Origin: Branchiostoma floridae
Lineage: Eukaryota > Chordata > Leptocardii > Amphioxiformes > Branchiostomatidae
Length of the DNA stretch: 64,000 bases
Assembly (NCBI RefSeq): GCF_000003815.2
Contig: NC_049993.1
Span: 5,983,686-6,047,685 of the forward strand
Direction: 5' to 3'
The notes under the pieces were generated by a model. The model had not been told where the DNA came from, searched no databases, and worked only from the letters and a program-made list of their open reading frames with translations. The translations under genes and the position numbers were made by a program. This document shows, one piece after another, positions 40,401-43,400 of this stretch; the stretch's first letter is position 1, and every line of letters begins with the position of its first letter.

Positions 40401-43400
40401 GATTTATTTATTTTTTTCAACCTTTATTTAACCTTGATACATCATTCGGCCTGAGCCATTTTTCAAGATTTCAAGGGTGGGGGAGGTCAGAGGTCTAAAT
40501 ACCTTCTAGATACAATGCAGTACACAAAAGATACAATTCAACATTCCATAGATACTTTCGTATTCAACATAATATCAGTCCATCTCATAGTCCATAGTTA
40601 CATAATTTCTCGTCGAGTCAAGTTCTTAAACGACGATAAAGAGGGCGCCTGCCTCAAGTTCTCGATCATTTGTCAGGGCTCGAAATACTGGGTGCATGTG
40701 CACCCAGGTGCACCCAAAATTGGAGCTGTGCACCCAATTATTTTCTGTGGGTGCACAGGGTGCACCCAAATATTTTCTTTGGTTTATGTATGTAAAGATA
40801 TCAAAGTATACTAGTATACATCATATCCTTGACATCTAAGTGTTCGAAAGATAATAAAAATGTCTGTCATGGTACTTGTTTAAGAATTTGATAGCTTGTA
40901 ACTAAGTTTTATTATTAGGTTATTACTTAGATTTAAGTGGTGCACCCAAACATTTTTTGGTGCACCTAATTTTTTAAGCTTGTTGCACCAGTGCACCTAA
41001 TCCCAAAAATGAATGTTGAGCCCTGTTTGTTGTTCCAGGTTGAGTATGTGGTGAAGTGCGAGATGTCGGCGCTCCAGCGTCTGCTGTACAGCCACATGCA
41101 GTCCAAGGGCGTGCTGCTGACCGACGGGTCCGAGAAGGACAAGAAGGGGCGCGGCGGAACCAAGACTCTCATGAACACCATCATGCAGCTCCGCAAGATC
41201 TGCAACCATCCCTTCATGTTCCAACATATAGAGGTAAATCTGTAACCATCCCTTCATGTTCCAACATATAGAGGTAAATCTGTAACCATCCCTTCATGTT
41301 CCAACATATAGAGGTAAATCTGTAACCATCCCTTCATGTTCCAACATATAGAGGTAAACATTCATGTTCCAACATATAGAGGTAAACCCCACTAAATCTG
41401 TAACCATCCCTTCATGTTCCAACATATAGAGGTAAACCCCACTAACTTTGTAACTATGCCTTCATGTTCCAACATATAGAGGTAAACATTCATGTTCCAA
41501 CATATAGAGGTAAACCCCACTAAATCTGTAACCATCCCTTCATCATTCATGTTCCAACATATAGAGGTAAACCCCACTAACTTTGTAACCATGCCTTCAT
41601 GTTCCAACATATAGAGGTAAACATTCATGTTCCAACATATAGAGGTAAATCTGTAGCCATCCCTTCATGTTCCAACATATAGAGGTAAATCTGTAACCAT
41701 CCCTTCATATTCCAACACGTAGAGGTAAATCTGTAACCATCCCTTCATGTTCTAACATATAGAGGTAAATCTGTAACCATCCCTTCATGTTCCAACATGT
41801 AGAGGTAAACATTCATGTTCCAACATATAGAGGTAAATCTGTAGCCATCCCTTCATGTTCCAACATAAAGAGGTAAATCTGTAACCATCCCTTCATGTTC
41901 CAACATATAGAGGTAAACATTCATGTTCCAACATATAGAGGTAAACATTCATGTTCCAACATATAGAGGTAAATCTGTAACCACCCCTTCATGTTCCAAC
42001 ATATAGAGGTAAATATTCATGTTCCAACGTATAGAGGTAAATCTGTAACCATCCCTTCATGTTCCAACATATAGAGGTAAATCTGTAACCACCCCTTCAT
42101 GTTCCAACATATAGAGGTAAACATTCATGTTCCAACATATAGAGGTAAATCTGTAACCACCCCTTCATGTTCCAACATATAGAGGTAAACATTCATGTTC
42201 CAACATATAGAGGTAAATCTGTAACCATCCCTTCATGTTCCAACATATAGAGGTAAATCTGTAGCCATCCCTTCATGTTCCAACATATAGAGGTAAATCT
42301 GTAACCATCCCTTCATGTTCCAACATATAGAGGTAAACATTCATGTTCCAACATATAGAGGTAACCCCCACTAAATCCCATGTTCCAACATATTGAGGTT
42401 AACCCCACTAAATCTGTAACCATCCCTTCATGTTCCAACATATAGAGGCTAGATACTGTAAATGCATTTAAGTTCGCAGGGATTTAATTTCTCGGTAGCA
42501 GGAAAAAGGACTGTTCGCGGTGGTTTTAAGTTTTCGGTAGCACCATGCACCGTAGTCTCTACCTGCCATGGAAACCACTGCAAAAATTTCTGCATTTACA
42601 GTACTTAAGATTTGAATTGTAGTCTGTGACTTATTTGAGTGTCTCAAGTGTATTCTTCCATCTGCATTGTAGTATCTTAATATCCAAGATAGCTTATATA
42701 CTTACAGATATACGCGATTCTCACACATTGATTTTTTCCCCCCACAGGAAGCGTATGCAGAGCACATTGGATCATCCTCAAGCATCATCCAAGGGTGAGT
42801 CATAACTACTGTAAAGAGTTTGTTTGTTTGTTTGTTTGTTTTATTGGGATCTCCATTAGCGATACCACAGTACCACTATTCTTCCTAGAGTCCTAAACAT
42901 AATCAACAAAAGTATACAATTGGTAAACAGAAAAGTAACAAAATCAACTGAGGTAATTTAAAGTGAACGTTAGAGATCATCAGAGGTCAAAATAAAATGT
43001 CAGAACTATTGTCTGGGGATTGAGCTAAAGCTATAGTTGTCTCCTGCATCCTCTCAGCAGACTAATGACTGTAGGTGAAAGTGAGCCTGATCATCCCCAT
43101 GTAGATCATTTGGTAGATCCCAAAGTGAAAGTCACCAGTCACAATNNNNNNNNNNNNNNNNNNNNNNNNNNNNNNNNNNNNNNNNNNNNNNNNNNNNNNN
43201 NNNNNNNNNNNNNNNNNNNNNNNNNNNNNNNNNNNNNNNNNNNNNNNNNNCAGCCAAACTTGTCTAAGAAGACAACCCTGGGGACCAATGTAAAGTGGTC
43301 TTTTTAGACAAGTTGTCTTCTTATGCAAAGGAAGAAAAAATGACAAGATAGGACAGACACAATGATTTCCGTCAATGGTCTTTTATTATTCCACACACCT

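What the first reader, a model, noticed from the sequence alone, without database searches (positions are those of the whole stretch)
41199..42450. Minisatellite made of an exon end plus its 5' splice site, about 31 donor copies
The last about 30 bases of a conserved ATPase exon and its GTAAAT donor are amplified head to tail into the intron, leaving about 31 intact AGAG|GTAA donor cores. The splicing machinery must choose the first one: every later choice adds Val-Asn-Leu and an in-frame TAA. It is a natural test of donor choice among near-identical competitors, and could be a population-variable VNTR inside an essential gene. The exact mix of 40- and 28-bp units also records its expansion history.
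Basis: seen in the sequence. Interest (0 to 1): 0.9.

Follow-up and report, generated by a model that had tools for sequence, protein, structure and literature searches.

The report
Lancelet splice-site minisatellite in SMARCA4 gene
In a lancelet's copy of a chromatin-remodelling gene, the end of one exon and its splice signal have been copied head to tail about thirty times into the next intron; this is a large example of a lancelet oddity already in print ("mirages"), and useful for studying how cells pick the right splice site.

Summary
Window 41199-42447 holds 33 exon-end/donor junctions, 31 of them exact AGAG|GTAA (the real donor plus 30 copies), running from a 195-nt SMARCA4/BRG1 exon into its intron. 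Each of the 30 later donors would add Val-Asn-Leu-stop. The 513-Mb genome fits the lancelet Branchiostoma floridae (species inferred).

It is not a one-off. Tandem repeats across exon-intron boundaries are published in lancelets as "mirages", reported not to disturb splicing and, at some loci, to differ in copy number. Two of my nine globin loci carry repeats of the published sizes. The same SMARCA4 gene has three smaller boundary duplications, and I found others in SNF2-family, TCP1 and kinesin genes, up to 8 donors or 11 acceptors.

Donor-core bases vary as often as neighbouring repeat bases (4/264 and 8/528), so no selection on the spare donors shows. Best reading: tolerated minisatellite growth, with the first donor chosen because only the full exon has both splice sites. 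New member of a known kind, notable for size; actual splicing and length variation are untested here.

The parts
41039..41233 (+). SMARCA4 exon, 195 nt, ending ...[13 protein letters not shown] with the authentic donor GAG|GTAAAT
41199..42447 (+). main array: 33 exon-end/donor junctions (31 exact AGAG|GTAA, including the authentic one); 32 units after the exon copy: 16 of 40, 10 of 28, 4 of 50, 1 of 57, 1 of 37 bp
41243..41245 (+). in-frame TAA that precedes every later donor
42748..42794 (+). next exon, EAYAEH...; its end is read by eye and approximate
28947..29220 (+). second boundary duplication: donor 28967 copied once, intact, at 29116
44238..44466 (+). third boundary duplication: acceptor before 44452 with two upstream copies (junctions after 44304 and 44386)
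46915..47602 (+). fourth boundary duplication: exon end plus donor 47006 (AGG|GTAAGG) with copies at 47167, 47331 and 47495 and a last partial copy

Best explanation
It is a lancelet mirage minisatellite: tandem duplications that spanned an exon-intron boundary of SMARCA4 and then expanded, probably by slippage or unequal exchange. The copies lie on the intron side, so they lengthen the intron and add spare donors without changing the protein. Splicing stays correct mainly because each copy is a truncated exon with a donor but no convincing acceptor; only the full 195-nt exon has both ends, so exon definition pairs the upstream acceptor with the nearest, authentic donor. A later choice gives VNL-stop and should be removed by nonsense-mediated decay. 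Shown: the anatomy, the stop codons, the equal donor 9-mers, the other boundary duplications. Inferred: the growth mechanism, use of the first donor, decay of mis-spliced RNA.
For: Exon-derived array with 31 exact donor cores in a BRG1 orthologue (E 5.9e-208). Three more boundary duplications in the same gene. Intact splice-site copies at other loci: L017 8 donors, L035 4, L013 11 acceptors and 2 donors, L038 and L058 2 donors each, kinesin locus L078 3 acceptors. Two of nine globin loci carry 157-bp donor and 154-158-bp acceptor repeats, the sizes printed for BflGb9 and BflGb6. [quoted passage not shown] Donor-core and neighbouring bases vary equally, 4/264 and 8/528. 17 of 31 donors, the real one included, share one 9-mer. 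Array AGs score -2.1 or -5.2 as acceptors against a real median of 8.2.
Against: No RNA data: use of the first donor is not shown. One of the gene's 14 real acceptors scores -12.4 in leave-one-out, so a poor score does not rule an acceptor out. The 46-nt context of the real donor (34 up, 12 down) is unique among the 31, though a 33-nt one is shared by 7 of 31 including it, so wider context could also mark it. An excess of such repeats at exon edges over intron positions was significant before curation (p = 1.2e-4) but not after (p = 0.17).
Confidence: 0.8

Rival explanations
1. Dual-specific or recursive splicing ladder: the AG|GT of each unit serves as acceptor and donor in turn, so units are removed stepwise without a scar and any donor choice is repaired.
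For: Each of the 31 cores has AG|GT. Human AGGT sites can work both ways, and splicing at such sites is enriched in tandem-repeat genes (abstract).
Against: Acceptor scores are poor: 24% (TAG|AG) and 39% (AGAG|) of background AGs in the gene score as well or better. No extra constraint on the AGAG|GTAA core.
Confidence: 0.07
2. Regulated poison switch: array length or later donors tune SMARCA4 output through VNL-stop products and nonsense-mediated decay.
For: All 30 later donors give the same early stop; other boundary duplications in the gene also lead to stops where translated.
Against: No constraint on spare donors; at another locus, L017, the units are in frame without stops, so a stop is not a general feature.
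Confidence: 0.06
3. Assembly artefact: the array or its copy number comes from mis-assembly.
For: An N gap lies nearby (43146-43250); the globin paper says that one mirage was aberrantly assembled in the genome draft.
Against: 15 distinct unit types serve as landmarks and the longest exact repeat is 115 bp. Similar arrays occur at other loci. The PGBD5 paper says that new data confirmed its sequence.
Confidence: 0.05

Closest known systems
Mirage minisatellites of lancelets (Adh3; globins BflGb6 and BflGb9; troponin C; PGBD5), from passages of PMC3087553 and PMC3902484
   Same: Tandem repeats across an exon-intron boundary; copies carry AG or GT splice signals; both donor and acceptor sides occur; lancelet genome.
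   Different: Far more units (33 junctions) than the counts given in the passages I read (up to 7; the Adh3 count was not seen); a different gene; four boundary duplications in one gene.
Dual-specific splice sites, UBC tandem array (PMC10809524; abstract and part 1 of Results seen)
   Same: Tandem array of AGGT sites.
   Different: In UBC the sites delimit coding monomers and are used both ways; here they lie in an intron, and acceptor use is neither shown nor well scored.
Intron gain by tandem duplication of an AGGT segment (Rogers model, as discussed in PMC3087553)
   Same: Duplication of a segment that holds a splice-site-like AGGT.
   Different: An existing boundary was duplicated; no new intron is seen.

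Membership tests
Lancelet mirage minisatellite | Tandem repeat whose unit spans an exon-intron boundary | tested here: met
   unit holds the exon end and GTAAA of the intron
Lancelet mirage minisatellite | Lancelet genome | tested here: met
Lancelet mirage minisatellite | Does not disturb regular splicing | not testable with these tools
   no RNA data on hand
Lancelet mirage minisatellite | Copy-number instability between haplotypes | not testable with these tools
   one assembly only; one locus in it
Dual-specific splice site array | AGGT core in each unit | tested here: met
   31 of 33 junctions AGAG|GTAA
Dual-specific splice site array | Sites are used as acceptors as well as donors | tested here: inconclusive
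   only a sequence score: -2.1 and -5.2 against a real median of 8.2, one real site at -12.4
Intron gain by tandem duplication | A new intron within a former exon | tested here: not met
   the copies lie in one intron between conserved parts ...FQHIE and EAYAEH...

The most novel reading that the evidence does not exclude
The 30 spare AG|GT sites form a ladder of dual-specific splice sites: wrong donor choices are repaired by further splicing between units without a scar, which lets such arrays grow freely in important lancelet genes and could let array length tune SMARCA4 output.
Probability: 0.07. Interest if true: 0.8.

Novelty: new member of a known kind. Interest (0 to 1): 0.42.

Why it matters
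By copy number it is the largest boundary-spanning array I met here or in the passages read, and it sits in a chromatin-remodelling ATPase gene. It offers a natural test of donor choice: 31 sites, 17 of them (the real one included) with one 9-mer, so the 9-mer cannot decide. With three more boundary duplications in the same gene and others in SNF2-family, TCP1 and kinesin genes, it suggests that lancelets tolerate splice-site duplication at many genes. If RNA reads show only the first donor used, that supports exon definition or proximity; if not, it shows a hidden splicing load.

Tried and rejected
Enrichment at exon edges. In 67 exon matches (the 30 best of 67 PF00176, the 30 best of 60 PF00118 and all 9 PF00042 matches, minus two of SMARCA4 itself) 10 of 67 downstream and 4 of 67 upstream edges are spanned by a local direct repeat, against 135 and 119 of 4020 random flank positions (pooled 14/134 against 254/8040, Fisher p = 1.2e-4). 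I do not lean on this. Edges are approximate (16 of 69 matches hold in-frame stops). I judged L019, L023, L033 and L065 unclear (joined exons, simple sequence or weak repeats). With these and the nine globin control loci dropped, 6 of 116 edges remain (L013 twice, L017, L035, L038, L058) and the excess is not significant (p = 0.17; the background was not curated in the same way). The exon copy is also under constraint, which makes such duplications easier to detect.

Selection on spare donors: tested, not seen. Copies 2-4 of the 164-bp array as cassette exons: the phase would allow it, but the would-be acceptors ttgttgtaag|GAG score -7.0 in three copies and -9.9 in the fourth, near the middle of background AGs. 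More acceptor copies upstream of L013: none found by the pattern in L079. First survey run and its display: minus-strand loci were not turned, so donor and acceptor labels there are wrong; one search replaces them. The Adh mirage paper and the human tandem-array intron paper are not held.

Full report
What is there. The window lies at G000:C15:5983686-6047685 in a genome of 513,431,437 bases; this size (recalled) and the globin loci below fit Branchiostoma floridae, which no call names. The gene on the + strand is a SMARCA4/BRG1 orthologue: 390 joined residues match human BRG1 with E 5.9e-208, and the N-terminal exons match it too. Exon 41039-41233 ends ...[13 protein letters not shown] with donor GAG|GTAAAT; the next exon begins at 42748 (EAYAE). 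From 41199 (inside the exon) to 42447 run 33 exon-end/donor junctions, 31 of them exact AGAG|GTAA; these are all the AGAGGTAA words on the + strand of the window. After the exon copy there are 32 units of 15 sequence types: 16 of 40, 10 of 28, 4 of 50, 1 of 57 and 1 of 37 bp. A DNA search of the whole genome found matches only in this array (32 matches listed, common words skipped).

Direction and history. The encoded residues are conserved in human BRG1, so the exon is the source. The 50-bp units carry CCCCACTAAA, which the 40-bp units lack; loss of ten bases between two AAA runs turns the one into the other, so I infer that the 50-bp unit is older. The 28-bp unit could come from the 57-bp one by a further deletion. 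These are inferences from the units. The longest exact repeat, 115 bp, lies at the exon end of the array (41204/41244), which may mean that the newest copies lie there. A MITE-like inverted repeat (arms 42454-42485 and 42572-42603, 75% complementary) follows six bases after the array.

Consequence of donor choice. The TAA at 41243-41245 precedes all later donors, and 30 of 30 exact later donors give [12 protein letters not shown]. Of the 31 exact donors, 17 (the real one included) have the 9-mer GAGGTAAAT, 13 GAGGTAAAC and 1 GAGGTAACC. On a model from the gene's 15 other clear donors the real site scores 5.7; leave-one-out scores of the 16 donors run from 4.0 to 11.0. So the 9-mer does not mark the real site. 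Wider context partly does: 24 bases up plus 9 down are shared by 7 of 31, but 34 up plus 12 down is unique to the real site. AGs in the units score -2.1 (TAG|AG) or -5.2 (AGAG|) as acceptors, best -0.9; 14 real acceptors have a leave-one-out median of 8.2, with one at -12.4. The copies are best seen as truncated exons with a donor but without a convincing acceptor, which exon definition (established knowledge) would pass over.

Not alone in the gene. A self-comparison of 25500-49300, the TRF table and a check of the junctions show three further duplications across splice sites: donor 28967 (copy at 29116), the acceptor before 44452 (copies after 44304 and 44386) and donor 47006 (copies at 47167, 47331 and 47495). 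These copies keep their AG or GT, and the later donors and upstream acceptors all lead to stops. I compared 24 donor and 24 acceptor positions, a few of them approximate, so 4 of 48 are affected.

Not alone in the genome. Among loci fetched by family searches, examples with intact splice sites are, by motif search: L017, 8 donors in 45- and 48-bp in-frame units that read like VRLLTGTPIQNTMAE; L035, 4 donors; L013, 11 acceptors and 2 donors; L038 and L058, 2 donors each. L013, L017, L035 and L038 came from the SNF2 family, L058 from the TCP1/Cpn60 family. In the kinesin table (134 matches) I noticed by eye three successive matches to the same profile start on contig C2; the sequence shows three intact acceptors before one exon (L078). 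Positive control: among 9 globin loci, L073 has a 157-bp donor repeat and L077 acceptors spaced 154-158 bp, the sizes printed for BflGb9 and BflGb6 (157 and 150-160 bp). The excess over intron positions is not robust (see Tried and rejected), so I claim that such repeats occur at many genes, not that they are enriched at boundaries.

What is in print. I saw passages of PMC3087553 (globins) and PMC3902484 (PGBD5), and the abstract and part 1 of the Results of PMC10809524. The first two name these structures mirages; list Adh3, globin, troponin C and PGBD5 cases; report copy-number differences (6 and 3 units in two haplotypes of BflGb6; 7 instead of 2 and 6 instead of 3 repeats in two sequences of PGBD5); cite somatic instability at Adh3; and hold that splicing is regular. 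The 2002 Adh paper is not held. My searches (and 59 with the gene's names) listed no paper on a SMARCA4 mirage; I saw their listings only, and the library is partial. The one BRG1 mention in the PGBD5 paper concerns a human promoter.

Selection. Across 33 junctions, the core AGAGGTAA differs from the commonest base in 4 of 264 cells and the 16 bases upstream in 8 of 528. The donors look kept by homogenisation and youth, not by selection, within the small numbers.

Verdict. Observation confirmed. Real splicing, length variation and exact copy number need RNA and long reads.

Noticed in passing
window 42454-42603: MITE-like element with imperfect terminal inverted repeats (TACTGTAAATGCA...TGCATTTACAGTA) just after the array; a similar reading (MHLSS.GFNF.VAGK) appears at 37900-38040.
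   Followed up: partly
window 46133-46314: Decayed 57-bp repeat, 3.3 copies, that by eye resembles the end of the same intron before exon 46788; possibly an old acceptor-side mirage.
   Followed up: no
window 37125-37191: 26-bp repeat, 2.6 copies, in the pyrimidine-rich stretch just before the exon that begins near 37195.
   Followed up: no
window 43701-43964 and 45403-45696: Two copies, 77% alike over 296 aligned columns, of a dispersed-looking repeat in two introns of the gene.
   Followed up: no
window 31427-31674: 127-bp intronic tandem duplication (1.9 copies) that does not touch a splice site.
   Followed up: no
L017: Mirage whose 45- and 48-bp units are in frame and free of stops, so later donors would insert repeats of the helicase motif LLTGTPIQN instead of a stop.
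   Followed up: partly
L013: Eleven intact acceptor copies before one SNF2-family exon: the acceptor counterpart of this finding.
   Followed up: partly
window 61797-62615 (-): Open frame of 272 codons on the other strand, outside this gene; not identified.
   Followed up: no
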